From Gracilaria domingensis (taxonomy: Eukaryota; Rhodophyta; Florideophyceae; Gracilariales; Gracilariaceae), in assembly GCA_022539475.1 (NCBI GenBank), contig VCMS01000144.1, positions 151,302-215,301 of the forward strand: a DNA stretch of 64,000 bases, in the 5' to 3' direction. The notes beneath the pieces were generated by a model. The model ran no database searches. It saw nothing but the letters and a program-made list of their open reading frames with translations, and was not told the origin of the DNA. Shown piece by piece: positions 8,300-60,915 of this stretch. The stretch's first letter is position 1, and each line of letters opens with the position of its first letter. Both the position numbers and the translations under genes were made by a program.

Positions 8300-8501
8300 A
8301 TGGCGCCACCTGCGCTGAACCCTCGAAACGGTGTAGCCAGAGATGCTGGTGTGCCTCCGCCTAGGCCTCCGCGTTCTCGCGCCTCCGTACCTGCAAGGTC
8401 GCCTGACAATGAACAGGTCCCGGAACCCCGGAGAGCTTCGTCAGTCACGTCGGGTCCGATGGCCGCTTCTACGGCAGGAGCTCCGCCCGTTACGGGTACT
8501 C
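8300..8501 (+). pseudogene. E2 gag, 5' part, interrupted by G1
   Basis: The ATG at 8300 opens a Pro/Arg/Ala-rich N-terminus (MAPPALNPRNGVARDAG) that matches E3 gag at 46033 downwards. The gene breaks at 8501 and resumes in the same frame at 19609, the other side of the 11.1-kb insertion. This defines the insertion point to within a few bases. An upstream TTG in the same frame (8264) could extend the ORF, but the ATG is the better start. Confidence 0.85.
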
Positions 8502-8516
8502 CGTCTGTGTTCTGCA
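8502..8516 (+). repeat. G1 left terminal inverted repeat
   Basis: CGTCTGTGTTCTGCA pairs with the reverse complement of 19592-19606. The same sequence starts the second copy at 54081. Confidence 0.65.
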
Positions 8517-8938
8517 AAGTGGAATATAGTCTGTTGCTTTGGAAACTAAGCTAGTTTTGGGTCTATTTGGGGCGCGCGAGGGGGTAGCAGGGGCTGGCAC
8601 TCAAAAAATCAAGAAATTTTGGAATATTAAATTCCATCTCGCGCAGTTTAGTTCTTGGGTCCCCTAGTTTTTGTAGAGGTTCTACTTCGCCGCATGGTCC
8701 CATTCACTCTTTTCCGCGACCCTCTCTCAAAACTGCACTCGTGCTAGTTTGCGTTTCCATTTTCTCCCATGTTGCAATGCCAATCGCAACTCATCCCACC
8801 TCAATCATCCCATCACTTCTTCCCAGTCCACACCACCCCCGCTATTTACCCATTTCTCGCCCCTCACGCGTTCATTTTGTAGAAGTCAGGTGCACAACTC
8901 TCCCCCTTCTCGTATACCCGCCTCGCCCCAAAACGGCT
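8517..8938. other. G1 left subterminal region
   Basis: No gene seen. The stretch includes GCTAGTTTTGGG near 8550, also present inverted near the right end, and GGGGCGCGCGAGGGG. It is nearly identical to the start of G2. Confidence 0.5.
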
Positions 8939-9868
8939 TCAAATCCCTCCCATCCTTCTCTCCTCCTGTCCCCTCAGAATCCCCTTCGCAGTCCTCGCTA
9001 CCTCTGCCGCACTCCTAAACCCAGTCACCACCGGAGCTCCCACTCCCTCCCGCGGCACCTCCTCCACCACCTTCTTCATCTCCTTACGCCTCTTCTTCAG
9101 ACGGCTCTTCCCATCCCCAACCCCACCACCCTTTGTCTTCGGTGTCACAGGAGACCCCTTCTGCACCGCCACCCTTCCCACACTTCCCTTCTCCGTCTTT
9201 CCCTCCACACCTCCTTTCACCGTCTCCTCTTCCACCAATCTTTGCCTCTTGCACAGCTCCTTCACCTCCTTCTCCAGCACGTCCAACCTCTCGTTCAAAA
9301 CCCTATTCTCCTCCCGCAACTCTCCAACCTCCCTTCCCGCACACTCCACTATCCCATACACATGATTTCTCATCTCCACTCCCAATACCGACAACGAATT
9401 CCGCAGGCTCGAAATCGCCTCAACCGAAACATCACTACCACCCCCACTCAGCACCACACCGCCCATTTCCGTTATAATCTGCACAATTCCATCGTCCAGT
9501 CGCTCCTTCATCACCAACCCCAACATCCCCACCCTCGCCTTCATCTCCCCCACAAACCGCATCTCCCTGTCACCCTCTCCGCCCCCACTCTCTATCTGGT
9601 CTCCAACCTCTAACTGACTCAGATGCACCGCACCCCTTCTCTCCATTGCGACCCCCTCCACCTCCAATTCTACCCCCTTCTCCACCTCATCACCATCCCC
9701 TCTCCTCGCCTCACACTTCTTTCCTTCATCGGCCACTTCCTTCTTCTGCGACATCCGACCAGCCGCCGTAATCACGTCCTCTTCCCGCTTTGGTGACGGC
9801 GTCTGCGGTACCTCCTCCCCCTCCAACAGCGCCAACAGCTCCTCATCCTTCACGTATCCGTTCGACAT
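8939..9868 (-). CDS. Coiled-coil protein of unknown function (G1 copy)
   Basis: A 309-residue ORF starting MSNGYVKDEELLALLEGEE; an in-frame GTG/TTG extension upstream exists, but this ATG is conserved in the G2 copy. The protein is charged and Glu/Lys-rich. A heptad-like stretch at roughly residues 150-235 (GREVGELREENRVLNERLDV, then LEKEVKELCKRQ) predicts a coiled coil, followed by a basic patch (SRLKKRRKEMKK). No catalytic motif or membrane segment is visible. The copy at 54550-55479 has the same length and differs by scattered substitutions with no stop, unlike neighbouring genes, which are broken in G1. The high-GC antisense strand gives long spurious ORFs. Confidence 0.65.
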   Translation of the reverse strand: MSNGYVKDEELLALLEGEEVPQTPSPKREEDVITAAGRMSQKKEVADEGKKCEARRGDGDEVEKGVELEVEGVAMERRGAVHLSQLEVGDQIESGGGEGDREMRFVGEMKARVGMLGLVMKERLDDGIVQIITEMGGVVLSGGGSDVSVEAISSLRNSLSVLGVEMRNHVYGIVECAGREVGELREENRVLNERLDVLEKEVKELCKRQRLVEEETVKGGVEGKTEKGSVGRVAVQKGSPVTPKTKGGGVGDGKSRLKKRRKEMKKVVEEVPREGVGAPVVTGFRSAAEVARTAKGILRGQEERRMGGI

Positions 9869-10501
9869 CTTCAGAAGAAGAAGTAGTAGTTGGATCGAAG
9901 TTTCCGCTGCGATACAGTGCAATCGAGCTAAACTGTGCTGTCCACCCCCACTGTCCAACCACACGGGCTATATCCAGCACCATGATTGTCCCTGTTTCCC
10001 TCATCCTATTTCCCGCCAAAACATCTACTGTACACCTCCGCATCTTCCAATATTTAAGCGCCATCTCTCTGTCCCCTCTTCACATAGTCCCCACCCACCT
10101 CGCCTCGACCGGCGATATTTTTCTCTTCCACCATAACCTCACTCGATGGTTATAGCAAAACAGGAAGATATTGCCAGTGGAGGCAAGCTAGGGACTAGTG
10201 ATTGTACTTAGAGTTGCTCACCCTCTGTCTCGACCGGGGGCATGTTCTTCTTCCGTCACATCCTTTGTGGGTTGTGACAAAAATCGAATATGTCACCACT
10301 CGACACCGGATGGGTAACTATGATAGCACGTAGAGTAGTTCATCCTCCCTCTCAGCGTCCACTGGGGATATATTGATGTTCTCTCACATCCTTTCCCGGT
10401 TGTGCCACTAGAAAAAAACATCTCCAATAGAGACGGTGAATAGAGTCGTGATAACACGTAAAGGTAACAATGTAATAAACAATAAATTTATGCTACTATC
10501 T
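9869..10501. other. Intergenic region of G1
   Basis: No gene seen. It is nearly collinear with 55480-56119 in G2. Short motifs such as TCACATCCT and CTCGACNGGGG recur several times, without a clear unit. Confidence 0.4.
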
Positions 10502-10825
10502 CTAACCAACCTTTCGAAAACCAGCTATGACATGAGCTGGGTTACTCGAGCCAAAGATGGCAGATCCTGCAACTAAAATGTTTGCACCGGCCTTCACTAC
10601 TCCTTTCACAGTACTCAGTCCAATACCCCCATCCACCTGTATCCCTATTCTTGGGTACAACTCCCTTGCATGTCGCACCTTGTCAAGAACACCCTCCATA
10701 AACGCCTGTCCTCCAAACCCTGGCTCCACCGTCATCAACAATAACATGTCTACAACTCCTTCGTTCATAAGTGCTTCTACGACCTTTATAGACGTATTCG
10801 GGCGCAATCCAACTCCATCCTTTTA
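10502..10825 (-). pseudogene. RPE: Ribulose-phosphate 3-epimerase, N-terminally deleted
   Basis: The C-terminal half of an RPE barrel is present: NTSIKVVEAL, LLMTVEPGFGGQAF, QVDGGIGLSTV and ANILVAGSAIFG. Compared with the intact copy at 56120-56827 it has lost a 13-bp piece (56435-56447 in G2) and then everything from 56460 to 56901, including the start, the first catalytic Asp region and the TATA-like promoter. The larger junction has the 3-bp microhomology ATT. It cannot make an active enzyme. Confidence 0.9.
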
Positions 10826-11219
10826 ATTATGGCAATCCAAGTGAAGCTATAGAACCCGTTCACGTCATTTATGAAGCCGAAATGGCTCCTTTCATCCTGT
10901 ATTCAAGCTCCCCGTAACTCGTACTTTACAACTACTTTACAACTCAGGTTCGAAATCAGTTTCATTCATTGTACACTTTCTACTCTTCCACCTACTTTTC
11001 ATAAAACATCATCACACTTTGTGGCTTGTCGTCTCATACAAGCCCTATCATTCCTTCAGTACAATCACATATCATACATTTCGCTCACTTTCACAAAGTG
11101 AACCATGTTCCCGTTCTGCGCTTCCCAACCGTTTGTACTTAAGTATCACTCTTTACCCCAGCAGTTCTCCGCCCCATCTTCCATTTCTATCGTCACACAA
11201 AAACATTCGAACACTTGCA
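10826..11219. other. Upstream region of ketopantoate-reductase-like pseudogene
   Basis: No gene seen. It is collinear with 56902-57292 in G2, where it forms the rest of the divergent promoter region between the RPE and KPR-like genes. Confidence 0.45.
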
Positions 11220-12122
11220 ATGAACTCCCAGTCCGACATGCCTCCGACTCCGCCTCCGAGTCCCAGATACTCTGACGTCCCTCAGGCCTCATCTCCCGCC
11301 CGAAGGACTCGAGCCGTTATTGTTGGAAGGGGGCGTATAGGTACCATGCTGGCGAACGAAGAAGATACGGTCATTTCCGCACTCGAATTCTGCAGCATGG
11401 CTGCTACCTCTCATCTTTCTGATGCACCGATACTAGTTTGTGGAAGAACGAACACCCTGGAGACCGTAATTCAGGCTTGACCTTATTCGCTCAGAGAGAA
11501 TCTCGTTTTCTTCCAGAATGGAGACATCATACCATTGCTTTCGAAGCTCGGTGTGGACAAATGTTCAAAAGTTGTCTTATACGTTGGTGTCCCCTCAAGA
11601 AACGCAGCTCCGCAGGATGGTGTCACTCCTCAAAGTCCGGATGGTCTCACTGTCGTAACAGGAAAGTGGGCCTCCAACGTTGCAGACAGGTTTAGGTCTA
11701 TGGGTCTCACTTGCGGGGTTGTTGACGAAGATACATTTCTCGTAAGCTATTATGAGAAGCTCGTGTGGCTATCATCGTTCAACATCGTCGAAGCCTCCAG
11801 AGGTTTCGTTCCTATGGACGTAGTCGCTACGGAGTGCAGTACGGTTGTGCTCACAATAATGAAAGAGCTGTTGAAGATAGTTTCGCTTAAGACAGGTACT
11901 ACTTTCAACCTGGAAGAGACCGTTGGGCGACTTCTTGCATATGGGAAAACTCTCGTTGGCTTCCCTACTTCTTTCTCCGACTTTCAGTTTAGGAACGCGT
12001 ACTTCTACGACTTTTCCCGCCAAGAAAGAAACATTGTAGGCGGTGACCCCGCTCCTTTTCATACAAACTACGTCAACGTTGTTAAGGAAAAGTTATCCCC
12101 CTCCCCATTCCCCCAGCTTTGA
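11220..12122 (+). pseudogene. Ketopantoate-reductase-like gene with a nonsense codon
   Basis: Same length (903 bp) and frame as the intact copy at 57293-58195, but the codon at 11478-11480 is TGA where the other copy has TGC (Cys). The product would stop after 86 residues, before most of the dinucleotide-binding domain. The glycine-rich motif is also altered (VGRGRIGTML against VGRGLIGTML). The downstream half (for example YYEKLVWLSSFNIV) is otherwise well preserved, which points to recent inactivation. Confidence 0.88.
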
Positions 12123-12181
12123 GGTTAGAAAACATGACTTTTCGGTGTTGTAAACCTTTTAGAGATAGTTAAACATAAAAG

Positions 12182-13300
12182 TTACTTTATCGAAATGACC
12201 TGTTCCCTAACTTCACGTACAATGGACTGTCGAAGTGAAAACCGGAAGTTATCCACAATTTCGCAACTTTTATCGCCGGGATAGATAACAAACGCATCCA
12301 TCTTCTGCAACAGGTCTCCAATAGCAGAATCCACTTCTTCTCTCCACTGCCACAGTTTGTTGTACACGAAATTGGAATTGAGGTTCACCTTTGGTACCTT
12401 CTGACGAATTCGTCTGTACGTCTTGCTCCGAGTAGGTGTCCCTTGTGTTCCAGACCGCTCGCCAGAAACACTTGAACGTGCCATTCTTGCGGACAGAAGC
12501 ACAACGTCATCGTCCTGCTGCTCCGCAGTTTCTGGTGCAGTTTGGGGTACAGATGGACCAGCTCCTTGTGCGGATTGCGCATCCGCGTCTGGAAGGGGAC
12601 CTTTTATGATCTCATCTTCCTCCTCTTGCACAGCCGTCCCCTGCTGAACCGTCTGTTTCGACGCAGAAGATCCCCTTGTGTCGACGGTTTGATTCATCGC
12701 AGGAGAAGCCCTTCTCGACCCAGTGGGCTTCGTAACGGAGGTAGACTTTGTTTGACCTGTCCGCTTCGTGGCTGGGGATGCTCTCGTCTTCATAGACCGC
12801 TTCGTAACAGACGACGGACCTGCCCGTGGAGGTGCTACTGATGCGCTACCTCTCGGTGTTGATGAACTTCGAATTGGCTCCGTGCGGCTTGTCGGCGTCA
12901 TCACCTCACTCATAGCGCTCACTGTTCCTCGCTTGGACGCCGGAATGCTGGCTGCCACCGGTTCCATCATTTTCCCATCCCAAGGAGCGGCCGTCCGGAG
13001 ATCCTGGATATATTGTGGAAGATCCAGGCCCTCCGCCCGGTAAGGGTAGAACGTCTGACCGCTTCGAATGATGAGAATATTATGAACCATCACAAGACCT
13101 GGGTCCAATTGCTTCCCGAGCAACTCGCGGCGTAGAACACTTCCAATTCCATGCAAAAACGCTTACCCCACTATCACCTTTCCTTCATTCTCAATATCCA
13201 TCTGCAGAGAAACCCGCATTCCACCTTGCAATAATCGAGTGCTACGCCGAGTGCGAGGAGTCACGCTTTGCGTACGCTTTCGAACACGAGTTGGCTTCAT
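12182..13300 (-). pseudogene. Chimeric ORF: disordered N-terminal gene fused to trehalose-phosphatase-like fragment
   Basis: The ATG at 13300 (MKPTRVRKRTQSVTPRTRRS) opens a frame broken by a TAA at 13163-13165 and then open to 12182. The middle is Ser/Thr/Arg/Pro-rich and probably disordered, with basic repeats (KRSMKTRASPATKRTGQTK). After RRIRQKVPKVNLN the protein switches to SNFVYNKLWQWREEVDSAIG, a piece of the HAD gene found intact at 59740-60651, and then to antisense sequence of the HAD gene at 58823-59694. The joins match three internal deletions relative to G2. The N-terminal part is the start of the large gene that leaves the window at 64000. A TTTAAAAG box lies at about 13378-13386. 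Confidence 0.8.
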
Positions 13301-13473
13301 GTTGAACAGCTATTGCAGTGAAAGGTGTATATCAACAATACGTTCGCTCTGGACGATACAAGAACGGATGCGAGCCTTTTAAATGGCGACTTACGCTGGG
13401 CACCCCCGCTTTCGGCAGCTCCTCCCAGCGCACTGCCAGTCTCGTCCGTGTCCTGTCCGTGGCCGCTCGCACG

Positions 13474-13671
13474 CTAATTGTACGCTTTAGAGTCGTGGAG
13501 TTCGCGCAATGATGACTCACGCGAGCAATGGTCGCGCTCTCTAATCATGCTCTTCAAATGCTTTGCATAGTAGTCAAGAGAACACTCATTTACTTCCATG
13601 TACAGCCTACTCCCGCGAATACACGTGGACAGCGGCGCCAACGTACCGGCGGCCGGGTGTAACGAAATCAC
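13474..13671 (-). pseudogene. Small ORF beside the palindrome array, possibly a displaced transposase C-terminus
   Basis: 65 codons (VNECSLDYYAKHLKSMIRER in the middle) read into the left edge of the array at 13658. It lies downstream of the CMC transposase on the same strand and could be its C-terminus, separated by insertion of the array. I could not match it to the C-terminus of the second CMC copy (40912-41214), so this is a weak inference. Confidence 0.25.
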
Positions 13672-14486
13672 TGCGGGGCGGCGTGTTTTGGGAGGTCCCG
13701 GGAAGGCGCCGAAATGTGGCCAAAACGTGCCCGCGAGCGGGGAGGGGTCGGTCGTGTTAGGGTACCTACCCTAACACGACCGGACCCCCCCCACCCCCGG
13801 GCATAAAATCGCACATTTTTCAAAAAATCGTCCAAAACGTGCCCGCGGGCGGGGGGGTCCGGTCGTGTTAGGGTAGCTACCCTAACACGACCGAACCCCC
13901 GCGCCCGCGGGCATAAAATCGCATATTTTTCAAAAAATCGTCCAAAACGTGCCCGCGGGCATAAAATCGCACATTTTTCAAAAAATCGTCCAAAACGTGC
14001 CCGCGGGCGGAGGGGTCCGGTCGTGTTAGGGTAGCTACCCTAACACGACCGACCCCCCGCGCCCGCGGGCAAAAAATCGCACATTTTTCAAAAAATCGTC
14101 CAAAACGTGCCAGCGGGCGGGGGGGTCCGGTCGTGTTAGGGTAGCTACCCTAACACGACCGACCCCCCCCGCCCGCGGGCATAAAATCGCATATTTTTCA
14201 AAAAATCGTCCAAAAGGTGCCCGCGGGCGGGGGGGGGTCCGGTCGTGTTAGGGTAGCTACCCTAACACGACCGACCCCCCTCCGCCCGCGGGCATAATAT
14301 CGCACATTTTTCAAAACATCGCCCAAAACGTGCCCGCGGGCGGGGGGGTCCGGTCGTGGTAGGGTAGCTACCCTAACACGACCGACCCCCTCCGCCCGCG
14401 GGCACGTTCTGGCCACATTTCGGCACCCTCCGGAGACCTTCGAAAGCACTCCTCCCGGCTCTTCTGGCAGTGATTTCGCTGCACAC
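13658..14486. repeat. Inverted-repeat-bounded array of palindromes
   Basis: The two ends are inverted copies: CGAAATCACTGC at 13662-13673 pairs with GCAGTGATTTCG near 14468, and the next roughly 90 bases on each side also match inverted (CCGAAATGTGGCCA). Between them a unit of about 110 bp recurs about six times. Each has a perfect palindrome around GTTAGGGTAGCTACCCTAAC (near 13760, 13870, 14030, 14140, 14250, 14365; the first reads GGTACC in the centre), a G/C-run, ATAAAATCGCACATTTTTC and CCAAAACGTGCCCGCGGGC. It looks like a MITE or the subterminal binding-site array of a DNA transposon. Confidence 0.85.
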
Positions 14487-17482
14487 GCCGTGCACACATA
14501 TCAAACTAGGGAAAACTAGCGCTTTACACCCACTTGATCCGCGACTTTTAGCACAATACGCGACCTTTGCAATAGCTCCGAATCGCGACGTGGCCGACAT
14601 CAGAGCGACTACCTGGGCAACCCAAGTCTCTGAATCTTCTCCGCTTACCAATACAGTGGAAAACTTTGGCTTTCTACTGGGACCAAATGCTGGAGAAGCG
14701 AAGACACGTTGGATGATGGGGTATTTGGGTCGTCCCAGCTTAAGTGCCTTAGAAGACGAATCGAAGTGTTCAAGAGTCGGAACGAAACCGCCTTTCACGA
14801 GGGCCGAATTCACCAGAGTTATCCTTGTCTTTTCTGAGAAGTATGTAATAGAGTGCTCATCCAGTGTTTCTTTCACGAGACTGAGGAAAGGAGGAAGGGC
14901 CTGTTCACCAATTTGATCAAGAATCGACCTTGTGTCCGTACTTGAGAACATTTCTCTAACAGCAGTCCATGTTTTTGAACTGGACATACTTGAAACACAA
15001 TGTTGAAGAGCTCGTAAAGTGAAAGAACGCCCTCTCATTGCAAATCGAGGAAGCTGTGTGGAAGTTCCTGGTAAACCTGGATTACGCTGGTAAGGAGTAT
15101 TGCCATTCCATTGCTTTCTAACATGTCCGTGCTCAATGGAGCGAATAGTCTCCTCCACAGCCGTTGCTGTTCTTCTGGACGTCTTTTTGTAGTGTCTCTT
15201 AAATAGCAGGTGTGCATGTTCGTATATGCCTGCGTCGTAGTACTTGATACTTCCCAGACGGCGAATATCGTCCACGAGATGATCGAGAAGATGAAACTTC
15301 AGAGTTTCCAGTCTGGAGGGATGAAAATCCGCCAGAGTCTTTGTTGCGGAACGCTTGAAGGTTTCAATCTCCGAACTAAGACACAGGAGAGAGCTTTCAG
15401 TCCAATACGGGTCACGATTGTATCTGAATAAGGTCGAGAGCAAGTCCGAGTACTGAGAGAAAACGGTTGTGATTGGGGCAACGTCCTGTTCTCCACAGCA
15501 TATGTCAAAGAATGCTCCTATGAAGGGAAAGACCATGTCAAGTGCTTTGTAGTTTTTGGCCTCCAGCATTCCACGGAGACCGTCTTTCGTGAAGATACCA
15601 TTCAAAGATTTCCTTTCTCCTGCGTGGAGAAATCGATATGTAAACCTTTGGCAGGAGAATCGCGTTCTATGGCAGCTAGAATTGCGTTTGCATGGTTGAG
15701 GAGTTGGGTGCGTATCGTTCGAAATGAACGCGATGCAGATGTTCCTATTGTGGTGCACAGGGTGTCTGACTGCAGTCTCTCGATTGTGGCCGTTTTTATC
15801 AGCTTTGAGATGCCGAGATGCAAGTTGTGTAATGGTTCGAATGAGAACAGACTGTATGGAGACAATCCCGGGATCATTCCAAGGCTTACGGAAGTTTCGA
15901 GGAACGAAGGAATGAGAGATATGGAATTTGAATGCATCAGAGTATCCTTTTGAGATCTCCTCTCCCTCGCACGACGAGGACGTCTTTCCGCCTCGTCTTT
16001 TTGTGCATGTTGCAAGATAGCTGTGTATGTCTTTCGGATGCTTTTCGTGTGCTTTTGAGAACGTCCGTTGAATGAGGTGGGAATAGGACTGCATAAAGAT
16101 GAGCGAGGGGCTTTGCATCTATGACACGGGCTTTCCGTTTTGGTCCCATGAAGAATGGACAGAATGTCCTTAGCCTCAGGAATATCCGCACAATAACTTG
16201 CAAGCAGAGGATGGCACACTCGACTTAGTTTGTCTTCCCCGATGAACTGAAAACCTTTCTGCGTGAGATTTAGAATGGGCTCCAGGACTTGACGAAGAGA
16301 TTCTTGAAGGATTTGCATCCTGGACTCGCGTAGAGACTTGCTAGAAACAAATGGCATTGCGTCTGCTTCAGATGCGGAAACCTCGATCAGTGTGGTAGGG
16401 AAGTATGCCACTACTGTGAGGTCATCACGGATACACTTACGGCGAAGCTCGTCGGAGAAGTTGAGAAATATGAGGTGAAGAGGATAGGCGGTAACCGATG
16501 TTTGCTTTAGAGTTGTTGAAGACTTATCGGTGTATACCTGCAGAAGACCTACGAAAGATTCACTGTAACTTATTTCTTGGGAGTACCACACTATTCTACT
16601 ATCCAAAGAGCCCATGACCATTTCCTTAAGTTTTGAGGTGGCGTCTCTTGCGAGAGAGCCGGACATGGGGTGAGATATTTTCGTGGAGTGGGTCTGAGGT
16701 ATAGGGTGGAAGAATGTGTTTTCGTTGTTAGCCAACTGGAGCTGTTTCACAAGTGTCTGAACGGGGTCTCTCGTGTAGAGGGTGGCGCTGAACTTACATC
16801 CTTCTGGCGAGACAGTTCTGCGATTGAAACCGTCCTTTGAGGCGTATCGTTCGAAAATGGCGTTCTTCAGTTCTGTACAGCGCTTGGAACTTGTTATGGT
16901 CTCGTTGAATCGCTTTTGCGAGAATCGCGGGTCCCGAAGTAGCCCAATTAGCTCGTCCGCCTCACGATGACCAAGGTTGGAAGCTACTGAAGCCAGACAA
17001 ACCGTGAGATAATCCATATGCAAATCACCAAGGGCCTTCTCAGAAGGCACTGGGCGGGAACTGGCTCCGTGTTCTCACTCTAATGACGCGGGACCCGGGG
17101 AAGGAGAAACACAATGCGAAGTGTCCGGAATGGGAGGGGCGCACGGAGTGGGGTCGACGATGTCCTCGGACACTGGAGGCTCGGGAAGGCGACAAGGGGC
17201 AGTGACCGTTTCGGAAGATGCGGGCGCGGGTGCGGAAAGCTTGAGACGCTTGCTTCTCCGAATAGCCCGGCTATTGTCGTCTTCCAGCGCTGCTTTCAGA
17301 CGAAACGGGCAATGGTTGACATGCTGTTGAAGAGATAAGACTCCTCGGCGAGTAACGAAGGGGCACCCACGCTTCTTATGTGTACAGTAGTAGACCATGG
17401 GAAGAAGAAATGAACGAGAAACGACGACAAAGACTGCAAGGGAAGGGCGTCCGAAGGGAGAAGGAGGTCGAGCGACAGTCAA
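14487..17482 (-). pseudogene. CMC/Plavaka-like transposase
   Basis: The ATG at 17482 opens about 1,000 codons. An N-terminal zinc-finger-like segment (CTHKKRGCPF, then HVNHCPF) is followed by a TGA at about 17072 in frame, and the ORF resumes to 15602. The core has LLASYCADIPEAKDILSIL with a following C-H-C cluster (ESPCHRCKAP) and SLFSFEPLHNLHLGISKL, matching the arrangement of fungal Plavaka and CACTA-type (CMC) transposases. A frame change near 15620 leads into the C-terminal part (HLLDHLVDDIRRLGSIKY, then GIYEHAHLLFKRHYKK). The 3' end runs into the palindrome array. A paralogous fragment lies at 40013-41214. It is probably the (now broken) mobility gene of G1, but a separate nested element is possible. 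Confidence 0.75.
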
Positions 17483-18090
17483 TATCGACGTGTTGCTCAG
17501 AATGGAGAATATATTTTGAGTTTAAATCACGTGCTTTCGTTCAAAAAGGAACGTAGGTACACGTCGACCTCAACACAAGGGTGTACTTCTCGTATTATCT
17601 ACCACTGGTTATAAACCTCTGGTTTCCCAACGTTGTACGCTGTACACTTGTCCAATCTCGCACAGAAAAATAAATCTCTTCCCTCCGCCGCCGCCCCCGC
17701 CCGTCCGACGTCCGATCTTTTGTTACCGTCGTGATCCGTGCCATCCTCGCGTTCTACTCCGCTCCGTCGTACGTTTTTCCGCCCTCGCACTCGCTACGAA
17801 GTGCGAGGGCGGAAAAAAGTACGACGGATTACGAAGTAGCGTGCTGAGAATTGATTCCATTAAGCGGACATGAAGCGTACCTTATTCTCTTTCTCCGCCC
17901 TCGTCGGACGCCTCCATAAAGCGGACAGCATCCGTATCTCACGGATGTATTCCGTGCAGTCTTTCCGTGCAGTCTTTTCGTACGTGCTTCCATTTCCTTC
18001 TACGTATCTTTGTTCTAAACTAACCAATCCTCACCACGTCTCTTCGCGCCCTGCGACATGTAAACGGCAGGAAAAAGGCTTTGGGTTACT
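17483..18090. other. Upstream region of the transposase
   Basis: No gene recognised, apart from the hairpin at 17764-17827. A 109-codon frame at 17870-18199 overlaps the tandem repeats and has no recognisable domain. CTCCGCCCTCGTCGGACGCC near 17890 repeats part of the hairpin arm. Confidence 0.4.
17764..17827. repeat. Long hairpin with 27-base arms
   Basis: The arm CCGTCGTACGTTTTTCCGCC (continuing CTCGCAC) pairs with its inverted copy after a 10-base loop, with one mismatch. It could be a cruciform or an inverted-repeat end of a small element. Confidence 0.85.
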
Positions 18091-18977
18091 TTTGCGAGTT
18101 ACTAGGTCCCTCGACTTTTCTAGCGCAACGTTTCTGTTTTGCTCTTATCAATGGTACGTTCTATCGCATTTCAACTGTATCCAACGGAGCATTGACTAAC
18201 TTATGGATACTTTCCGCTTGCGTATACAGGAAAACGACCAATTTCATTTCGTCTCTCAAGATCGATCTCTGGCTGTTCGGGATAGGCGATTCTGGTACTT
18301 GGTTGGGACATAGGCTGCTCTCTCGTTTATCGCATCTTGAGGTATGTTTGCTGCATGGCCATTCTTGGTGTCCTTGGTTGTGAGTTCTCGCTTCGACACC
18401 TTTTCGCGCTTTACGATGATGGTGGGCTGGTAATCTAACCGATCCCTTTCCTGCTTCTTCTTCCGTTTGCGAGTTACTAGGTCCCTCGACTTTTCTAGTG
18501 CAACGTTTCTGTTTTGCTTTATCAATGGTACGTTCCATCGCATTTCAACTGTACCCAACGGAGCATTGACTAACTTATGGATACTTTCCGCTTGCGTATA
18601 CAGGAAAACGACCAATTTCATTTCGTCTCTCAAGATCGATCTCTGGCTGTTCGGGATAGGCGATTCTGGTACTTGGTTGGGACATAGGCTGCTCTCTCGT
18701 TTATCGCATCTTGAGGTATGTTTGCTGCATGGCCATTCTTGGTGTCCTTGGTTGTGAGTTCTCGCTTCGACACCTTTCGCGCTTTACGATGATGGTGGGC
18801 TGGTAATCTAACCGATCCCTTTCCTTCTTCTTTTTCATTTTGCGAGTTACTAGGTCCCTCGACTTTTCTAGCGCAACGTTTCTGTTTTGCTTTATCAATG
18901 GTACGTTCCATCGCATTTCAAATGTATCCAACGGATCATTGACTAACTTATGGATACTTTCCGCTTGCGTATACAGG
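18091..18977. repeat. Tandem repeat, period 373-375 bp, about 2.4 copies
   Basis: Units begin TTTGCGAGTTACTAGGTCCC at 18091, 18466 and 18839. The third is partial and ends after GCTTGCGTATACAGG at about 18977. Units are nearly identical, so the duplication is recent. The open frames on both strands repeat with the unit and are unlikely to be genes. Confidence 0.92.
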
Positions 18978-19440
18978 TAAATGACTTTTGATGCGTACGT
19001 AGCTCACGAGTTGCAGGTGCAGGTTCCTCAAGTGGGGAACCATGCATCTGGGCATGGTTCCCTACATGACGAACGGAGAGGATGAGGCGCTTCGCGCCTC
19101 ATCCTCTCGGAGTGCGTATGTGTTCTACCGTTACCGCAATTTGGTGCAGGTGCCCTCTGCGGCATCTGCCGCAGATTGTGCCTACACCCGATCCATCATG
19201 GGGAAATGGTACATGTAATATAGCGAAGTAGTGGTTAGCAAAAGCGGTCGATAGAAGAATAGATACGAATAAAACGGTATGATTTCATAATGGGCATCAT
19301 CTGTACTAGCACTAGTATTCCATGCGTTGCAGGGTATCATTCCGCAGAAGGTATCATGTAATGTGCACCTTAATGGAAACTGAACCTAGACTTCGCGAAA
19401 TACAGTTCAGGTAGCCCTCGACTAAAGAACTAGCACGAGT
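18978..19440. other. Right part of G1 with hairpins, no gene seen
   Basis: Apart from the hairpin cluster at 19033-19176, I see no gene. The sequence becomes AT-richer towards 19440. Confidence 0.4.
19033..19176. repeat. Cluster of three hairpins
   Basis: Stems: GGGAACCATG with CATGGTTCCC (19034-19062); GAGAGGATGAGGCG with CGCCTCATCCTCTC around loop CTTCG (19076-19108); TCTGCGGC with GCCGCAGA (19157-19176). The middle one resembles a UUCG-type tetraloop hairpin or terminator. Their function is unknown. Confidence 0.8.
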
Positions 19441-19479
19441 TGAAAACCCACCAGTATTTACTGCACAGCGATTCTGGAC

Positions 19480-19591
19480 GACCCAAGCAATTATCTGCAG
19501 ATTTTGAAATAATTGATCTCGATATTTTTTCAAAAAATTTACTGGACGACCCTTGCCAATTTCTGGACGACCCTCGCCAAAAACTAGCATC
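19480..19591. repeat. G1 right subterminal repeats
   Basis: TGGACGACCC occurs three times (about 19482, 19543, 19564), the last two followed by TTGCCA and TCGCCA. Subterminal repeats of this kind commonly bind transposases in CMC and related elements. Confidence 0.7.
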
Positions 19592-19606
19592 TGCAAGAGA
19601 CAGACG
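19592..19606 (-). repeat. G1 right terminal inverted repeat
   Basis: TGCAAGAGACAGACG is the inverted counterpart of 8502-8516, with three mismatches. E2 gag resumes at 19607. Confidence 0.65.
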
Positions 19607-21500
19607 TCCGGCCACGGAGAGACCAGACGATGTGGTTGAAACCTCTGGATACTCGTACCTCGAGGCTCAACTGCGTGTCAGTCAGCTCGCCTAAAACTCG
19701 TTGTTCGAGGATCTGCAGTATCTCAGACGGAAGCTTGACCAAGCTGAAATCGGAGATCCGACCAATGACATTCGTGTCTTACGTCAAGATTTGAATTCCA
19801 TTTTGGAAAGTCTGGGTGCACCAGCCGCTTTTGTTCAAGCTTACCATTCCTCTATTCAGGAGCATCGAACTGAAATCGATCGCCTAACCACTCGGTTGTC
19901 TAATCTCGAAGAGATCATCCGGATGGCTAACGCATCTGATGCGAAGAATGCTAAGGAAGAAGCCTCCAAGCGCTTGGCACGCCAACCTCCGTATCATGGA
20001 AATCGACGATCCAAAAAGGAACTCCGTTACGACTCGGATTCGTCTAGTTCCAATTCTAGTGTTCGCTCTGCGAAGTCATCGTCTGATTTGTCTGACAGTG
20101 ATGAGGACCGACATCGGTATAGCAGTCGCTCCCACGGAACGAATTCGAAGGCGACGTTTACCTCTCAAGGTGCTATTCGCTCACGCGAAAAGGGTAGACG
20201 ACACCTTGGTCTGAAAGAGCTGAAACCAACGAATCTCCTCTACAGGAAGCTGTTGTCGTATCGTTATTTTCGATTGGACGATTCATCGTCAAGTCGCACC
20301 TCGCTAAGCACCGGTAAGGTGAAGGACCACATCAGAAGACTGAATATCGTCTTTATGAGGAAATTCGATGGCGAAGATTCCATTATGGTTCTAGATTTCC
20401 TGGCCCGCTTTGTGCAGGATGCCGATATTCTCGGTATGAACGAGGCTCAGGCGTTTCTCGCTTTACCCTATTTCTTGTCAGGGATGGCTGAAGATCAGTT
20501 CAATTCCGTTCGCGGATCATCCCGTGCGTCTGAGGAAGGTGTTACTTGTTGGCCGGAAGCGGTCCAGTACCTCTTGAGGTTGTATACGACAGGAAACGCG
20601 ATTCACAACGCGACGCTCGCTCTGCGAGATACGAAGCAGAAGCCGGATGAAACCGAAACGGCATACTCAACTAGGTTGAACAAAGCGTTTCATCGCTGTG
20701 GTAACTTTTATTCCGCCGACGAAAGATGCACGATGTTCGTGGATGGATTGATCCCCACAATCAGGGTTTTAGTCGCGCGTGTTCGCGAAGACAAACGTAG
20801 AATTACGTATCTGGAACTGGTCCAGTTTGCCCAAGCGGAGGGCGAAGTCTTGCGTGCTCGCAACCCTAAGAAGTCCCACCGTTCGAGGGCTCTTCTCGTA
20901 CACGAGTCATCTCCATCTTCTTCACTGGAACGTGGGAATTCCATCAATCCGGATTTGGATAATGTGCATTTCATTGCAGGTCATCCCGATTCGTACGGGT
21001 CTTCTGAGATTCCGTCGTCGACAGCTCCGACTTCGGAAAGTGACCCAGCTCTTTATATGGGAGGACAACGGGTACCGGCCGCCCCACTCGCTTATGCGAA
21101 TAACGGAAGCCGTTTCTCACGCCCAGGATGGATTAATGCGCAACCGCAGCGTCGGATGGATGGTAATCGATCTTTCGATAAGCCGGTAACGGCTATCTGT
21201 CACATTTGTTACCGACACGGTCATATTGCACCTGTGCGCATGTTGCCCGCTCGGGAGTTACCGAAAATTATCGGGTGGTATGAATCTCTGTCATCAGCTG
21301 ACAAGGCTCGTGTACCGAGTAAGAATTATGAAGCGCAGAAAGCCATGTTTGGCAACCCTGGTACAGGACAGAACGTTCGTGTAGACGAAACTCGGAATGC
21401 GACCGAACAGATGACTGCGACTCACCCCGATACCGGGAATTCAGTTCCTAACCCTGGCCAGGGAATGCCTTCACCGGCGGAACCAGCCCAGAAAAACTAG
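19607..21500 (+). pseudogene. E2 gag, main part
   Basis: The gag frame resumes after G1 (ATERPDDVVET), meets a TAA at 19692-19694 where E3 has a Gln codon, and is then open for 599 codons from 19701. It contains an N-terminal coiled-coil-like stretch (IDRLTTRLSNLEEIIRM), a Ser-rich charged linker, a retrotransposon-gag-like core around 20330-20850 (FLARFVQDADILGMNEAQAF, ALPYFLSGMAEDQF) and a CCHC knuckle CHICYRHGHIAPVR, whose last Cys is Arg here (Cys in E3). It ends PAQKN and TAG. It would package element RNA into particles. Confidence 0.85.
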
Positions 21501-43934: not shown

Positions 43935-46033
43935 GTTTAGTTTTTCTGGGCGGGGTTGGCCGGCGACGGCAAACTCTGTCCAGAGTCGGAAACAGAATTC
44001 CTGGGTTCGGGGTTGGTCACAGTTACCCGTTCAGCCTGGGTCCGAGGTTGCTCAGTTCAAACGTTCTGTCCTGTAACAGGATTGCCAAACTTGGCCCTTT
44101 GCTCTTCATAATTCTTACTCGGAAGACGAGCACGGTCAGCTGGTGACAAGGAATCACACCACCCGATAATTTTCGGTAACTTCCGAGAGGACAGCACGCA
44201 CACAGGTGCAATATGACCGGGTCGGTAACAAATATGGCAGATGGTCGTCACCGACTTATTGAGAGATCGATTACCATCTGGCCGTCGTTGCGGTTGCGCA
44301 TTCACCCATCCTGGGCGTGAGAAACGGCTGCCGTTGTTGGCGTAAGCGAGTGGAGCGGCCTGTACTCTTGTTCCTCCCATATAGAGTGCGGGGTCACCTT
44401 CCGAGGTCGGAGTGGACGACGACGGAAGGTCAGAAGACCCGTACGAATCGGGAGCACTTCCAACGAAGTGGACTTTATCTAGATCCAGGTTTACGGAGTT
44501 TCCACGTTCCAAGGAGAGAGATGGGGATGACTCGTTGACGAGCAACGCTCTTGAGCGACGGGGTTTCGGCGGGCGCCGAGCACGGAGCACTTCGACTTCA
44601 GCCTGGGCATACTGGACCAATTCCAGATACGTAATCTTACGTCTCTCTTCGCGATATCGCGGCACCAAAGCCTGGATAGAAGGATCCCACCATCCACGAA
44701 CATCGTGCATCTCTTCTGAACGAAGTACACATTTCCACAGGGATGAAACGCTTTATTCAACCCTGTTGAGTAAACCGTTTCGGTCTCTTCAGTCTTCTCT
44801 TTCGTATCTCGTAGAGTGAGCTTCGCGTTGTGAGTCGCGCTTCCTGTTGCATAGGACCACAGGAGATATTGGACCGCTTCTGGCCAACAACTGACACTTC
44901 TCTCAGATGCACGGGACGACTCTTGGGACCGAGTTAAACTGATCTTCAGCCATCCCTGACAGAAAATAGGGTAAAGTGAGAAACGCTTGCGCCTCTTTCA
45001 TACCGAGAATGTCGGTTTCCTGCACAAAGCGGGCCAGGAAGTCCAGTACCAGAAATGGATCTTCGCCATCGAATTTCTTGGTAGAGACGATGTTCAGTCT
45101 TCTGATGTGTTCCTTCACCTTACCGGTGCTTCGCGAGGTGCCACTCGACGATGAATCGTCCAATCGGTAATAACGATACGATAACAGCTTCCTGTAGGGT
45201 AGATTCGTTGGTTTCAACTCCTTGAGTCCAAGATGACGTCTACCTTTCTTGCGAGAGCGAATCACTCCTTGAGTGGCATATGTCGCCTTCGACTTCGTCC
45301 CGTGGGATCTACTCTCATACCGTTCTCGGTCTTCCTTACTGTCCGAAGAACTGGAAGAAGCAGATTTCGCAGAGCGAACGCTAGAATTGGAACTAGATGA
45401 ATCCGAGTCATAACGGAGTTCCTTTTTGGATCATCGATTTCCGTGATACGGAGACTGGCGTGCCGAGAGCTTAGAAGCTTCTTCCTTAACATTCTTCGCA
45501 TCAGTTTCGTTTTCGATCCGGATGATCTCTTCGGGAGGAGACAACCTAGTGGTTAAGCGATCGATTTCAGCTCGATGCTCCTGAATAGAGGAATGGTAAG
45601 CTTGAACAAAAGCGGCTGGTGCACCCAGACTTTCCAAAATGGAATTCACGTCTTGACGTAAGACACGAATGTCATTGGTCGGATCTCCGATTTCAGCTTG
45701 GTCAAGCTTCCGTCTGAGATACTGCAGATCCTCGAACAACGAGTTTTGCGCGAGCTGACTGACACGCAGTTGAGCCTCGAGGTACGAGTATCCAGGGGTT
45801 TCAACCACATCGTCTGGTCTCTCCGTGGCCAGAGTACCCGTAACGGGCGGAGCTCCTGTCGTATAAGCGGCCATCGGACCCGACGTGACTGACGAAGCTC
45901 TCCGGGGTTCCGGGACCTGTTCATTGTCAGGCAGCCTTGCAGGTACAGAGGCGCGAGAACGCGGAGGCCTAGGCAGAGGCACACCAGCATCTCTGGCCAC
46001 ACCGTTTCGAGAGTTCGGCGCAGGTGGCGCCAT
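43935..46033 (-). pseudogene. E3 gag, frameshifted
   Basis: ATG at 46033 (MAPPAPNSRNGVARDAG). Open pieces: 46033-45431 (with the Gln where E2 has a stop, and the coiled-coil-like IDRLTTRLSPPEEIIRIEN), 45265-44903 (FLARFVQETDILGMKEAQAF) and 44710-44057 (CCHC knuckle CHICYRPGHIAPVC, complete). The final part (about 44040-43935) ends PAQKN and TAA. Several frameshifts divide it. It matches E2 gag across its length. Confidence 0.85.
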
Positions 46034-54080: not shown

Positions 54081-54549
54081 CGTCTGTGTTCTGCAAAGTG
54101 GAATAAAGTCTGTTCGGTTTGGAAACTAAGCTAGTTTTGGGGCTATTTGGGGCGCGCGAGGGGGTGGCAGAGGCTGGCACTCAAAAAAATTGAGAAATTT
54201 TGGAATATTAAATTCCATTTCGCGCAGTTTAGTTCTTGGGTCCCCTAGTTTTTGTAGAGGTTCTACTTCGCCGCACCACCCCATTCACTCTTTTCCGCGA
54301 CCATCTCTCAAAACTGCACTCGTGCTAGTTTGCGTTTCCATTTTCTCCCATGTTGCAATGCCAATCGCAACTCATCCCACCTCAATCATCCCATCACTTC
54401 TTCCCAGTCCGCACCACCCCCGCTATTTACCAATTTCTTGCCCATCACGCGTTTGCATCCTCTCTCTCCGTCTCCGCAAACGTCATTTTGTAGAAGTCAG
54501 GGGGACAACTCTCTCCCTTCTCGTATACCCGCCTCGCCCCAAAACAGCT

Positions 54550-55479
54550 TCAAATCCGTCTCATCCTTCTCTCCTCCTGTCCCCTCAGAATCTCCTTCGC
54601 AGTCCGCGCTACCTCCGTCGCACTCCTAAACCCCGTCACCACCGGAGCTCCGACTTCCTCCCGCGGCACCTCCTCCACCACCTTCTTCATCTCCTTACGC
54701 CTCTTCTTCAGACGGCTCTTCCCATCCCCAACCCCAACACCCTTTGTCTTCGGTGTCACAGGGGACCCCTTCTGCACTGCCACCCTTCCCACACTTCCCT
54801 TCTCCGTCTTTCTCTCCATACCTCCTTTCACCGTCTCCTCTTCCACCAATCTTTGCCTCTTGCCCGGCTCCTTCACCTCCTTCTCCAGCACGTCCAACCT
54901 CTCGTTCAGAACCCTATTCTCCTCCCGCAACTCTCCAACCTCCCTTCCCGCACACTCTACTATCCCATACACATGATTTCTCATCTCCACTCCCAATACC
55001 GACAACGAATTCCGCGGGCTCGAAATCGCCTCAACCGAAACACCACTACCACCCCCACTCAGCACCACACCGCCCATTTCCGTTACAATCTCCACAATTC
55101 CATCGTCTAGTTGCTCCTTCATCACCAACCCCAACATCCCCACCCTCGCCTTCATCTCCCCCACAAACCGCATCTCCCTGTCACCCTCTCCGCCCCCACT
55201 CTCTATCTGGTCTCCAACCTCTAACTGACTCAGATGCACCCCATCCCTTTTCTCCATTGCGACCCCCTCCACCTCCAATTCTACACCCTTCTCCACCTCA
55301 TCACCATCCCCTCTCCTCGCCTCACACTTCTTTCCTTCATCGGACACTTCCTTCTTCTGCGACATCCGACCAGCCGCCGTAATCACGTCCTCTTCCCGCT
55401 TTGGTGACGGCGTCGGCGGTACCTCCTTCCCCTCCAACAGCGCCAACAGCTCCTCATCCTTCACGTATCTGTTCGACAT
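54550..55479 (-). CDS. Coiled-coil protein of unknown function (G2 copy)
   Basis: 309 residues from MSNRYVKDEELLALLEGKEV, colinear with the G1 copy (8939-9868), without indels that break the frame. The same coiled-coil region and basic patch are present; the C-terminus differs slightly (RRMRRI). An alternative start upstream would add 32 residues including a Leu run, but this ATG is better supported. Role unknown: a structural or DNA-associated accessory protein of the element is possible. Confidence 0.65.
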   Translation of the reverse strand: MSNRYVKDEELLALLEGKEVPPTPSPKREEDVITAAGRMSQKKEVSDEGKKCEARRGDGDEVEKGVELEVEGVAMEKRDGVHLSQLEVGDQIESGGGEGDREMRFVGEMKARVGMLGLVMKEQLDDGIVEIVTEMGGVVLSGGGSGVSVEAISSPRNSLSVLGVEMRNHVYGIVECAGREVGELREENRVLNERLDVLEKEVKEPGKRQRLVEEETVKGGMERKTEKGSVGRVAVQKGSPVTPKTKGVGVGDGKSRLKKRRKEMKKVVEEVPREEVGAPVVTGFRSATEVARTAKEILRGQEERRMRRI

Positions 55480-56119
55480 TTTCAGGAGAAGAAGTAGTAG
55501 TTGGATCAAAGTTTCCGCTGCGATACAGTGCAATCGAGCTAAACTGTGCTGTCCACCCCCACTGTCCAACCACATGGGCTATATCCAGGACCATGATTGT
55601 TCCTGTTTCCCTCATCCCATTTCTCACCGAAACATCTACTGTACACCTCCGCACCTTCCACTATTTAAGCGCCACCTCTCTGTCTCCTCTTTCGCGCTCA
55701 CATAATCCCCACCCACCTCGCCTCGACTGGCGATATTTTTCTGTTCCACCATAACCTCACTCGATGGTTATAGCAAAACAGGAAGATATTGCCAGTGGAG
55801 GCAAGCTAAGGACTAGTGATTGTACTTAGAGTAGCTCACCCTCTGTCTCGACTGGGGGCATCTTCCTCTTCCGTCACATCCTGGGTGGGTTGTGACAAAA
55901 AAAGAATATGTCACCACTCGACACCGGATGGGTAACAATGATAGCAAGTAGAGTAGTTCATCGTCCCTCTCAGCGTCCACTGGGGATATAATGATGTTCT
56001 CTCACATCCTTTCCCGGTTGTGATACAAGAGAAATACATCTCCAATGGAGACGGGGAATATAGTCGTGATAACATGTAAAGGTAACAATGTAATAAACAA
56101 TAATTTTATGATACTATCT
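55480..56119. other. Intergenic region of G2
   Basis: Collinear with 9869-10501; no gene seen. Confidence 0.4.
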
Positions 56120-56827
56120 CTAACCAACCTTTCGAAAACCAGCTATGACATGAGCTGGGTTACTCGAGCCAAAGATGGCAGATCCTGCAACTAAAATGTT
56201 TGCACCGGCCTTCACTACTCCTTTCACAGTACTCAGTCCAATACCCCCATCCGCCTGTATCCCTATTCTTGGGTACAACTCCCTTGCATGTCGCACTTTA
56301 TCAAGAACACCCTCCATAAACGCCTGTCCTCCAAACCCTGGCTCCACCGTCATCAACAATAACATGTCTACAACTCCTTCCTTCATAAGTGCTTCTACGA
56401 CCTTTATAGACGTATTCGGGCGCAACGCAACTCCAACCTGCATTCCCATCCTTTTAATTCGGTTACATAATTCCTTCAACACCACGTTCTCCTCCTCAGT
56501 TGGTACCTCGCACTTTTCTAGTCCCTTAGCCACACTCTCGATATGAAATGTGACTCCGTCTGCGCCTGCTTCTGCAAGGTCTTTTATCCAGCGCCCAGGA
56601 TCTGAGACCATCAGATGACAGTCCAAAAATAATTTCGTATGCCTCCGCAACGCTTTCATAACAGGCGGTCCAACAGTAAGGTTCACCACAAAATGACCAT
56701 CCATTACATCTATATGCAGCCACTCCGCTCCAGCCTCTTCCATTGCACTCGCTTCATCTGAAAGGCGAGCAAAGTCTGAAGCCAAAATTGATGGCGCTAT
56801 AATTAAAAGAGAATCCATACTGAACAT
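56120..56827 (-). CDS. RPE: Ribulose-phosphate 3-epimerase
   Basis: Interconverts D-ribulose 5-phosphate and D-xylulose 5-phosphate in the pentose phosphate and Calvin pathways. The 235-residue length is typical. Motifs in order: IAPSILASDFARLSDE, WLHIDVMDGHFVVNLT (catalytic Asp; the family usually has Pro where the second Val stands), LFLDCHLMV, FHIE, LLMTVEPGFGGQAF and ADGGIGLSTV (second catalytic Asp). No clear transit peptide, so it is probably cytosolic. The ATG at 56827 is the first after the TATA-like box; a second ATG at 56818 is equally plausible. It is divergent from the KPR-like gene. The G1 copy is deleted. Confidence 0.92.
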   Translation of the reverse strand: MFSMDSLLIIAPSILASDFARLSDEASAMEEAGAEWLHIDVMDGHFVVNLTVGPPVMKALRRHTKLFLDCHLMVSDPGRWIKDLAEAGADGVTFHIESVAKGLEKCEVPTEEENVVLKELCNRIKRMGMQVGVALRPNTSIKVVEALMKEGVVDMLLLMTVEPGFGGQAFMEGVLDKVRHARELYPRIGIQADGGIGLSTVKGVVKAGANILVAGSAIFGSSNPAHVIAGFRKVG

Positions 56828-56871
56828 CGATAACTTCAGTAACGCCAAACCCGTCCTTCCCAGACACACCC

Positions 56872-56881
56872 CCCTTTTATA
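56872..56881 (-). promoter_or_regulatory. TATA box of RPE
   Basis: GGTATAAAAG on the minus strand, about 45 bases upstream of the first ATG. It is removed in G1 by the deletion of 56460-56901. Confidence 0.65.
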
Positions 56882-57292
56882 CCTTAATAAAAAAGAAGAT
56901 TATGGCAATCCGAGTGAAGCTATAGAACCCGTTCACGTCATTTATGAAGCCAAAATGGCTCCTTTCATCCTGTATTCAAGCTCCCCGTAACTCGTACTTT
57001 ACAACTACTTTACAACTCAGGTGCGAAATCAGTTTCATTCATTGTACACTTTCTACTCTTCCACCTACTTTTCATAAAACATCATCACACTTTGTGGCTT
57101 GTCGTCTCATACAAGCCCTACCATTCATTCAGTACAATCACATATCATACATTTCGCTCACTTTCACAAAGTAAACCATGTTCCCGTTCTGCGCTTCCCA
57201 ACCGTTTGTACTTAAGTATCACTCTTTACCCCAGCAGTTTTCCGCCCCATCTTCCATTTTTATCGTCACACAAAAACAATCGAACACTTGCA

Positions 57293-59694: not shown

Positions 59695-59739
59695 CTATGA
59701 TCTCAGTAATAAAAGTGTCGTATATATCTCAATACCCTT

Positions 59740-60651: not shown

Positions 60652-60915
60652 ACTTCTCTTAAAAGCAACCTTAAGTGCAGTTTCAGAAATGTTAGGACGC
60701 TACATGTTCAATTGCGAATTGACTGGTGCCACCAATGATGTTAACGATACCGAGCATTTGGCATGTTGCAATTAGACGCAACTGGACCAAAGACGTTTGA
60801 CATTTGTTCAATTACCAGCCTGCCGCACCTTTTCTATGTTCATATGTATAGCCTTGTAATAGTATACTACTCTTAATACTCGCAAGACACACATAATTTA
60901 CTAATCATCTCATTC
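60652..60915. other. Intergenic region of G2
   Basis: No gene seen. A cluster of stops in all frames around 60820-60900. Confidence 0.4.

What the first reader, a model, noticed from the sequence alone, without database searches (positions are those of the whole stretch)
8502..19606. An 11-kb cargo-carrying DNA-transposon-like element inserted in a Ty3 gag gene
Seen: E2 gag stops at 8501 and resumes in frame at 19609. The insert has imperfect inverted ends (CGTCTGTGTTCTGCA and inverted CGTCTGTCTCTTGCA), inner GCTAGTTTT words, three subterminal TGGACGACCC repeats and a possible TC duplication. The same left end begins a second copy at 54081. It encloses metabolic genes (RPE, a ketopantoate-reductase-like gene, phosphatase-like genes) and a CMC-like transposase. 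Inference: a large DNA transposon that carries host-type genes, comparable in principle to fungal Starships or gene-carrying CACTA elements but of another type.
Basis: partly seen in the sequence, partly recalled or inferred. Interest (0 to 1): 0.92.

Follow-up and report, generated by a model that had tools for sequence, protein, structure and literature searches.

The report
Gene-carrying transposon family of a seaweed
The insert is a real jumping-DNA element, a shrunken copy of a roughly 23-kb family with hundreds of copies in a red seaweed; long copies carry, besides the jumping enzyme, a metabolic enzyme, phosphatase-like genes and a DNA-methylating enzyme.

Summary
8502-19606 is one precise insertion: 15-bp imperfect inverted ends, a TC target duplication, and 40 other places in the genome (one in this window) where the same gag stretch runs on uninterrupted. 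The ends occur 576 (left) and 563 (right) times in the 78-Mb genome; reversed-pattern controls give 0. Of 32 end pairs examined, 18 share a 2-bp duplication, against 8% for mismatched flanks. The genome is most likely Gracilaria domingensis.

The transposase is of the Plavaka type, but the ends (CGTCTGT...ACAGACG) fit neither described Plavaka subgroup.

Main correction: this 11-kb copy is an internally deleted derivative. Its epimerase is truncated, the "ketopantoate reductase" has a premature stop and no profile support, and the phosphatases are remnants. Long copies (about 22.9 kb) carry epimerase, two HAD phosphatases, a DNA N6/N4-methylase-SET gene and more. No copy with both a target duplication and full-length epimerase or methylase was seen. 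Epimerase copies now vary almost as if unselected, though the gene was conserved long-term.

Enlarged CACTA elements of Chondrus and TET-carrying Plavaka are precedents: a new variant of a known kind.

The parts
8502..19606 (+). E1, internally deleted copy of the transposon, 11,105 bp
   Evidence: same ends in 576/563 places; TSD TC; empty paralogous sites
8500..8501 (.). left copy of 2-bp target duplication (TC)
19607..19608 (.). right copy of 2-bp target duplication (TC)
8502..8516 (+). left terminal inverted repeat
19592..19606 (-). right terminal inverted repeat
   Evidence: 12 of 15 identical to left
8550..8558 (+). subterminal word GCTAGTTTT, left
19580..19588 (-). subterminal word GCTAGTTTT, right
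19475..19573 (+). three subterminal TGGACGACCC repeats (19475, 19543, 19564)
8939..9967 (-). open frame of 342 codons, charged protein of unknown function; equivalent frame open in second copy (54550-55578)
   Evidence: this frame was not scanned against Pfam
10505..10822 (-). truncated ribulose-phosphate 3-epimerase (residues 154-259)
   Evidence: (C144:161806-162123)
11220..12122 (+). 'KPR-like' gene (GxGxxG motif by eye) with premature TGA at 11478-11480
12204..12375 (.). remnants (48 and 127 bp) of two HAD phosphatase genes
13720..14404 (.). array of ~110-bp palindrome-containing tandem repeats
14373..17398 (-). Plavaka-type transposase gene, split over several frames in this copy (1100-codon frames open elsewhere); outer limit 17398 set by eye from the long copy
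54081..64000 (+). E2, second and longer copy, cut by the contig end
   Evidence: same left end; window end = contig end
56120..56899 (-). ribulose-phosphate 3-epimerase gene, open frame, in E2
57293..58195 (+). KPR-like gene, 300 codons open, in E2
58625..59416 (+). HAD-type phosphatase (Cof/HAD-IIB) frame in E2, shortened relative to other copies (290 aa)
59740..60699 (-). second HAD-type phosphatase frame in E2
   Evidence: weak
60916..62417 (-). possible 2-oxoglutarate/Fe(II) dioxygenase-like gene in E2, in two frames
   Evidence: HxDF...H motif in relatives of the gene; no profile support
45682..45981 (-). uninterrupted paralogue of the target gag stretch (empty site)
19609..21500 (+). target: continuation of the interrupted Ty3-type gag region

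Best explanation
8502-19606 is an internally deleted copy of a large cut-and-paste DNA transposon family of a red alga, most likely Gracilaria domingensis. The family encodes a Plavaka-type transposase on its minus strand. That transposase most likely binds the subterminal repeats and the CGTCTGT...ACAGACG ends, excises the element and inserts it with a 2-bp stagger. Shown: ends, copy number, 2-bp duplications, empty sites, transposase profile, cargo between the ends. Inferred: the cut-and-paste chemistry, the binding sites, and mobilisation in trans of copies with broken transposase. The full-length form is about 22.9 kb and carries a recurring cargo: ribulose-phosphate 3-epimerase of florideophyte descent, a KPR-like gene, two HAD phosphatases, a DNA N6/N4-methylase-SET gene, a possible dioxygenase and several unknowns. 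Shorter forms (about 10-14 kb) arose by internal deletion and spread as such. The cargo most likely helps the element, for example by altering DNA or chromatin marks to escape silencing (inference); a metabolic benefit is not shown.
For: Ends found 576 and 563 times within 2 mismatches, controls 0. 2-bp duplication in 18 of 32 end pairs: 10 of 12 under 12 kb, 6 of 10 of 12-16 kb, 2 of 10 at 16 kb or more; mismatched-flank control 81 of 992. Empty gag sites at 40 of 40 scored places. Plavaka profile E=1e-19 in this copy and 123 scored matches in the genome, many in frames of about 1100 codons. A 13.9-kb copy on C16 with TSD AA holds KPR-like, HAD and a 1052-codon transposase frame, each without stops. 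A 21.4-kb copy on C6 with TSD GA holds HAD and the dioxygenase-like gene. Epimerase: Pfam E=5.9e-66, best PDB match E=2.2e-66. Methylase E=1.4e-15 and SET E=2e-07, both over cut-off, in the copy of that gene on C237. E1 aligns to the 22.9-kb copy on C203 as blocks separated by deletions; its four blocks over 1.3 kb are 93.9-96.5% identical.
Against: 14 of 32 end pairs show no duplication, 8 of 10 among those of 16 kb or more. 51 of the 100 listed left ends found no partner among the listed right ends within 30 kb. No copy was seen with both a duplication and full-length epimerase or methylase: E41, C18 and C34 hold one or both but lack a TSD. I put this down to assembly joins or recombination within long repeats, which is an inference. 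Epimerase copies vary almost as if unselected. The 22.9-kb copy on C203 contains 1,229 N and an altered right tip, and its methylase frame stops short of the SET end.
Confidence: 0.88

Rival explanations
1. The insert is an assembly chimera of repeats, not a real insertion.
For: Most pairs of ends 16 kb or more apart lack a duplication (8 of 10), and the contig ends inside the second copy, so long copies were hard to assemble.
Against: E1 has TC on both sides and its flanks join to the gag sequence seen uninterrupted in 40 of 40 scored places; 10 of 12 pairs under 12 kb have a duplication.
Confidence: 0.04
2. The cargo genes are passengers of the host genome that were captured recently and at random, as in Pack-type elements.
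For: The host has its own epimerase (C17:505012-505731, 58% identical) and the cargo epimerase falls in the florideophyte clade. Epimerase copies are close to neutral among themselves.
Against: The same genes recur together in the units looked at. The element's epimerase sits on a long branch (1.04 changes per site) with its frame open and pN 0.26 against pS 0.76 to the host gene, so it was kept for a long time.
Confidence: 0.15
3. The cargo is a working module, selected because it protects the element or supplies a modified nucleotide or sugar.
For: A DNA methylase-SET gene and a possible dioxygenase travel with epimerase and phosphatases. TET/JBP cargo of fungal transposons is read as an escape from silencing (PMC12730594, abstract).
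Against: No expression, activity or clear present-day selection is shown; abundant short forms spread without full-length epimerase.
Confidence: 0.25

Closest known systems
Plavaka DNA transposons (PlavakaA, PlavakaB; CMCT clade), incl. TET/JBP-carrying PlavakaB (PMC12730594; abstract, section 3.2.2 and passages seen)
   Same: Plavaka-profile transposase; 2-bp target duplication; some families carry an extra DNA-modifying enzyme
   Different: ends CGTCTGT...ACAGACG, neither TGT...ACA nor CATCA...TGATG; red alga; about ten further open frames in the long copy, including a metabolic enzyme and a methylase-SET gene; no TET/JBP hit in the frames scanned
Enlarged En/Spm (CACTA) families of the red alga Chondrus crispus, 16-20 kb, 4-5 ORFs (Kojima et al. 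2013 as cited in PMC6431247; passage seen)
   Same: red alga, oversize CMC-type elements with extra ORFs; Chondrus also has a relative of the dioxygenase-like protein (P0124, 30%)
   Different: classed as En/Spm; here 2-bp duplications and non-CAC ends; whether the ORF sets are related was not tested, and the original report was not seen
Plavaka giant repeats of Amoebidium (PMC11244446; passages seen)
   Same: clusters of genes next to a Plavaka transposase, up to 50 kb
   Different: described as tandem clusters, many genes being tyrosine recombinases; no tyrosine recombinase was hit in the frames scanned here
Starship elements of Pezizomycotina (search listing and starts of abstracts only)
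   Same: large, carry host-type genes
   Different: tyrosine-recombinase captain, varied cargo, lower copy number (partly recalled); here a Plavaka transposase and hundreds of ends with recurring cargo

Membership tests
Plavaka (CMCT) | transposase matches the Plavaka profile PF18759 | tested here: met
   71.4 bits against cut-off 26.3; 123 scored genome matches over cut-off, of two kinds
Plavaka (CMCT) | 2-bp (A) or 2-3-bp (B) target duplication (PMC12730594) | tested here: met
   18 of 32 pairs share 2 bp, control 8%; 0 of 32 share 3 bp
Plavaka (CMCT) | termini TGT..ACA (A) or CATCA..TGATG (B) | tested here: not met
   CGTCTGT..ACAGACG in the 32 pairs, which were picked by that motif; hence neither A nor B
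Plavaka (CMCT) | C(2)C and H(3-4)H motifs and catalytic D/D/E | not tested
   no alignment of the transposase with known Plavaka proteins was made
EnSpm/CACTA | CAC..GTG termini and 3-bp duplication (PMC12730594) | tested here: not met
Zisupton (KDZ) | 8-bp duplication (PMC12730594) | tested here: not met
   no match longer than 2 bp in 22 pairs checked to 10 bp; 3 bp in 0 of 32
Starship | tyrosine-recombinase captain | tested here: inconclusive
   no such family among Pfam hits of the frames scanned, but not every frame was scanned; a Plavaka transposase is present
Pack-type gene capture | copies lack transposase and carry different gene fragments | tested here: not met
   recurring cargo, with transposase in the same unit in C8 (20.2 kb), C16, C18 and C23

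The most novel reading that the evidence does not exclude
A self-contained, roughly 23-kb cut-and-paste element whose fixed cargo joins a DNA N6/N4-methylase-SET protein and a possible dioxygenase to sugar-phosphate enzymes (epimerase, HAD phosphatases) as one working module, for example making or reading an unusual mark or modified base on its own DNA, and so reached hundreds of copies in a red alga.
Probability: 0.12. Interest if true: 0.87.

Novelty: new variant of a known kind. Interest (0 to 1): 0.62.

Why it matters
Most eukaryotic cut-and-paste transposons carry one or two genes (recalled; PMC6431247, passage, says the same of En/Spm). A family with hundreds of ends that keeps a metabolic enzyme and a bacterial-type DNA methylase fused to a SET domain would show that such elements can hold a fixed multi-gene cargo, and that red algal genomes, described as half or more repeats (PMC10388701, passage), can be expanded by gene-carrying DNA elements. 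It makes two questions testable: whether element-encoded methylases set marks in red algae, and why a sugar-phosphate enzyme would travel with a transposase.

Tried and rejected
AlphaFold models of the dioxygenase-like protein (mean pLDDT 33.5) and the KPR-like protein (34.3) are too poor to use, so no fold search was run. Pfam, NCBIfam and PDB searches did not support a KPR identity, and the protein database gave one relative at E <= 0.001, from G. domingensis. The dioxygenase call rests on an HxDF...H motif alone; PDB and Pfam gave nothing. A ParB-like reading of one frame of the long copy is by eye only, without profile support. I expected the weaker epimerase hits to be older subfamilies: the three fetched (C9, C245, C518) are 92-97% identical in DNA to the window copy and merely decayed, so that idea was dropped. 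One piece of the C6 copy (L119), where the methylase was expected, did not match the long copy, so the methylase is not shown in that TSD-bearing copy.

Selection among epimerase copies: 29 of 30 fetched loci were used; L044 lies near a contig end and its cut-out came back empty. Mean pairwise pN 0.036, pS 0.048, ratio 0.76, so slight constraint is possible. Variants seen in one copy: 192 non-synonymous, 73 synonymous, 12 stops; in two: 20, 12, 2; in three or more: 15, 4, 0; neutral expectation 71%, 26%, 3%. A first translation of these loci mixed strands; one search corrected it. The paper searches, of an open-licence library only, listed no report of this element; the G. domingensis genome paper (J Phycol 2022, cited) was not seen.
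Full report
What was checked. The window is G000:C144:151302-215301 of a 77.9-Mb, 680-contig genome. A protein of this element family is named as Gracilaria domingensis on a 288,287-base contig, the length of contig C89 here; another is named the same. The host epimerase groups with that of Agarophyton chilense (100/96), and a 78-Mb G. domingensis genome is cited in PMC10388701 (passages). I take the host to be G. domingensis.

The insertion. Left end 8502, right end 19606, TC on both sides, 12 of 15 end bases inverted-identical. The joined flanks matched all 40 scored places (of 92 candidates) as an uninterrupted stretch, 38 over 1-300 and 2 over 1-298, at 96-98%. One lies in this window at 45682-45981 (-), 290 of 300 identical. 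The junction is therefore exact, and the target is a repeated Ty3-type gag region.

The family. The left end occurs 280+296 times and the right end 262+301 times with up to 2 mismatches; reversed controls give 0. Only the first 100 of each are listed, all without mismatch. Of the 100 listed left ends, 49 pair with one of the 91 listed right ends that I entered (9 of 100, on C65-C69, were left out; no listed left end lies there) on the same strand within 30 kb; two right ends serve two left ends each. 51 of 100 found no listed partner. Flanks of 30 of the 49 were fetched; E41, also one of the 49, was read from L069/L070; E1 was added. Thus 32 pairs were examined. 18 of 32 share 2 bases across the element, against 81 of 992 for mismatched flanks. 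By size: under 12 kb 10 of 12, 12-16 kb 6 of 10, 16 kb or more 2 of 10. The duplicated dinucleotides vary (11 kinds), so there is no fixed target. By eye, one copy (C32, TSD AT) and the left flank of C54 lie in sequence of the family itself. The excess of missing duplications in long pairs is most simply explained by assembly joins or recombination within long repeats; this is inferred.

The transposase. Frame 15602-17074 (-) matches Plavaka at E=1e-19. In this copy the gene is split over frames; elsewhere frames of 1100 codons are open. The 123 scored genome matches (of 672 candidates) are of two main kinds by profile range: E1's kind covers about positions 41-272; the other covers about 105-317 and may be a second family. 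Kojima (PMC12730594; abstract, one section and passages) gives TGT..ACA or CATCA..TGATG as Plavaka termini with 2-3-bp duplications. The duplication fits and the termini do not.

The cargo. A copy on C203 runs 22.9 kb from left end to right end with 1,229 N inside and an altered right tip. Its frames include epimerase, KPR-like, two HAD phosphatases, a dioxygenase-like frame, a methylase frame (N6_N4_Mtase E=1e-14; SET only E=0.19, the frame being cut short) and the transposase. The C237 copy of the methylase gene (L115) has N6_N4_Mtase E=1.4e-15 and SET E=2e-07, both over cut-off; the ends around that copy were not looked at. One search reports 1055-codon open frames in several copies, so a further N-terminal part of about 340 residues is probably fused (inferred). 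Counts in the genome, by hand from the listings: epimerase 147 matches of 477 candidates, the host gene included, of which 38 cover at least 255 of 259 residues, 21 of those 38 without stops. KPR-like 131 of 525 scored, 123 without a stop. First HAD 135 of 917 scored, 127 without a stop. Methylase 68 matches, 67 of 904 scored. Dioxygenase-like 168 matches, 84 of 738 scored. These are the best-scoring places, so open fractions are biased upward.

Cargo within units. C16 (13.9 kb, TSD AA) has KPR-like, HAD and transposase. C6 (21.4 kb, TSD GA) has HAD and dioxygenase-like. C34 (22.6 kb, no TSD) has KPR-like, HAD, dioxygenase-like and methylase. E41 (16.9 kb, no TSD) has full-length epimerase and methylase; C18 (19.0 kb, no TSD) has full-length epimerase and transposase. 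Thus HAD, KPR-like and dioxygenase-like genes are shown inside duplication-flanked units; full-length epimerase and methylase are shown only between matching ends without a duplication.

E1 as a derivative. Against the C203 copy, E1 aligns as blocks 1-2352, 2812-4192, 5169-5216, 5932-6058, 9827-11358, 17855-21335 and 22759-22865, the four longest at 93.9-96.5%. Much of what lies between is missing, including half the epimerase, most of both phosphatases, the dioxygenase-like gene and the methylase; E1's 18090-19498 falls opposite the N of the C203 copy. The epimerase deletion is shared with many copies (hits starting at residue 154) and with the C6 copy, so deleted forms have themselves multiplied.

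Origin and constraint of the epimerase. The tree used 70 of the 120 listed relatives (7,996 in all), the host copy and two element copies; its bootstrap had not settled. The element copies lie in a 27-row clade (97/97) with Chondrus, Gracilariopsis, Agarophyton and the host copy, on a branch of 1.04. Against the host gene: 58% amino-acid identity over 232 codons, pN 0.26, pS 0.76 (saturated). That is long-term constraint. Among 29 copies the pN/pS ratio is 0.76 and single-copy variants fit neutrality. So a recent burst followed by decay is the likely present state, and function is inferred for the ancestor only.

Precedents and novelty. Enlarged 16-20-kb En/Spm families with 4-5 ORFs in Chondrus crispus are mentioned in PMC6431247 (passage). 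Plavaka-associated giant repeats exist in Amoebidium (PMC11244446, passages), and EnSpm-Plavaka elements in a green alga (PMC12633428, one passage). None, in what I saw, describes this cargo or these ends. My searches for such a report were made, in an open-licence library; Repbase itself could not be searched. I rate it a new variant of a known kind.

What remains uncertain. The KPR and dioxygenase labels are weak. Cargo function and benefit are unknown. The full-length unit has not been seen with a duplication. Cut-and-paste mode is inferred from the transposase type and the duplications.

Noticed in passing
window 1570-4494 (-): Ty3-type element remnants with integrase domains and a chromodomain.
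   Followed up: no
window 51445-52032 (-): Copia-type reverse transcriptase stretch (RVT_2) upstream of the second copy.
   Followed up: no
G000 C22:687175, C12:68428, C61:51020 and others: A second kind of Plavaka transposase (profile positions ~105-317, frames to 1110 codons), perhaps another element family.
   Followed up: no
window 13720-14404: Array of ~110-bp repeats holding the palindrome around GGGTAGCTACCC inside the transposon; similar repeats in the copies on C41 and C203.
   Followed up: partly
G000 C41:48790 and C29:688: Two copies of the transposon share the same 16-base left flank with different right flanks, suggesting insertion in a repeat, recombination or misassembly.
   Followed up: no
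protein P0124 (Chondrus crispus, 225,884-base contig): Hypothetical protein related (30%) to the dioxygenase-like cargo; its neighbours could show whether Chondrus En/Spm elements carry the same cargo.
   Followed up: no
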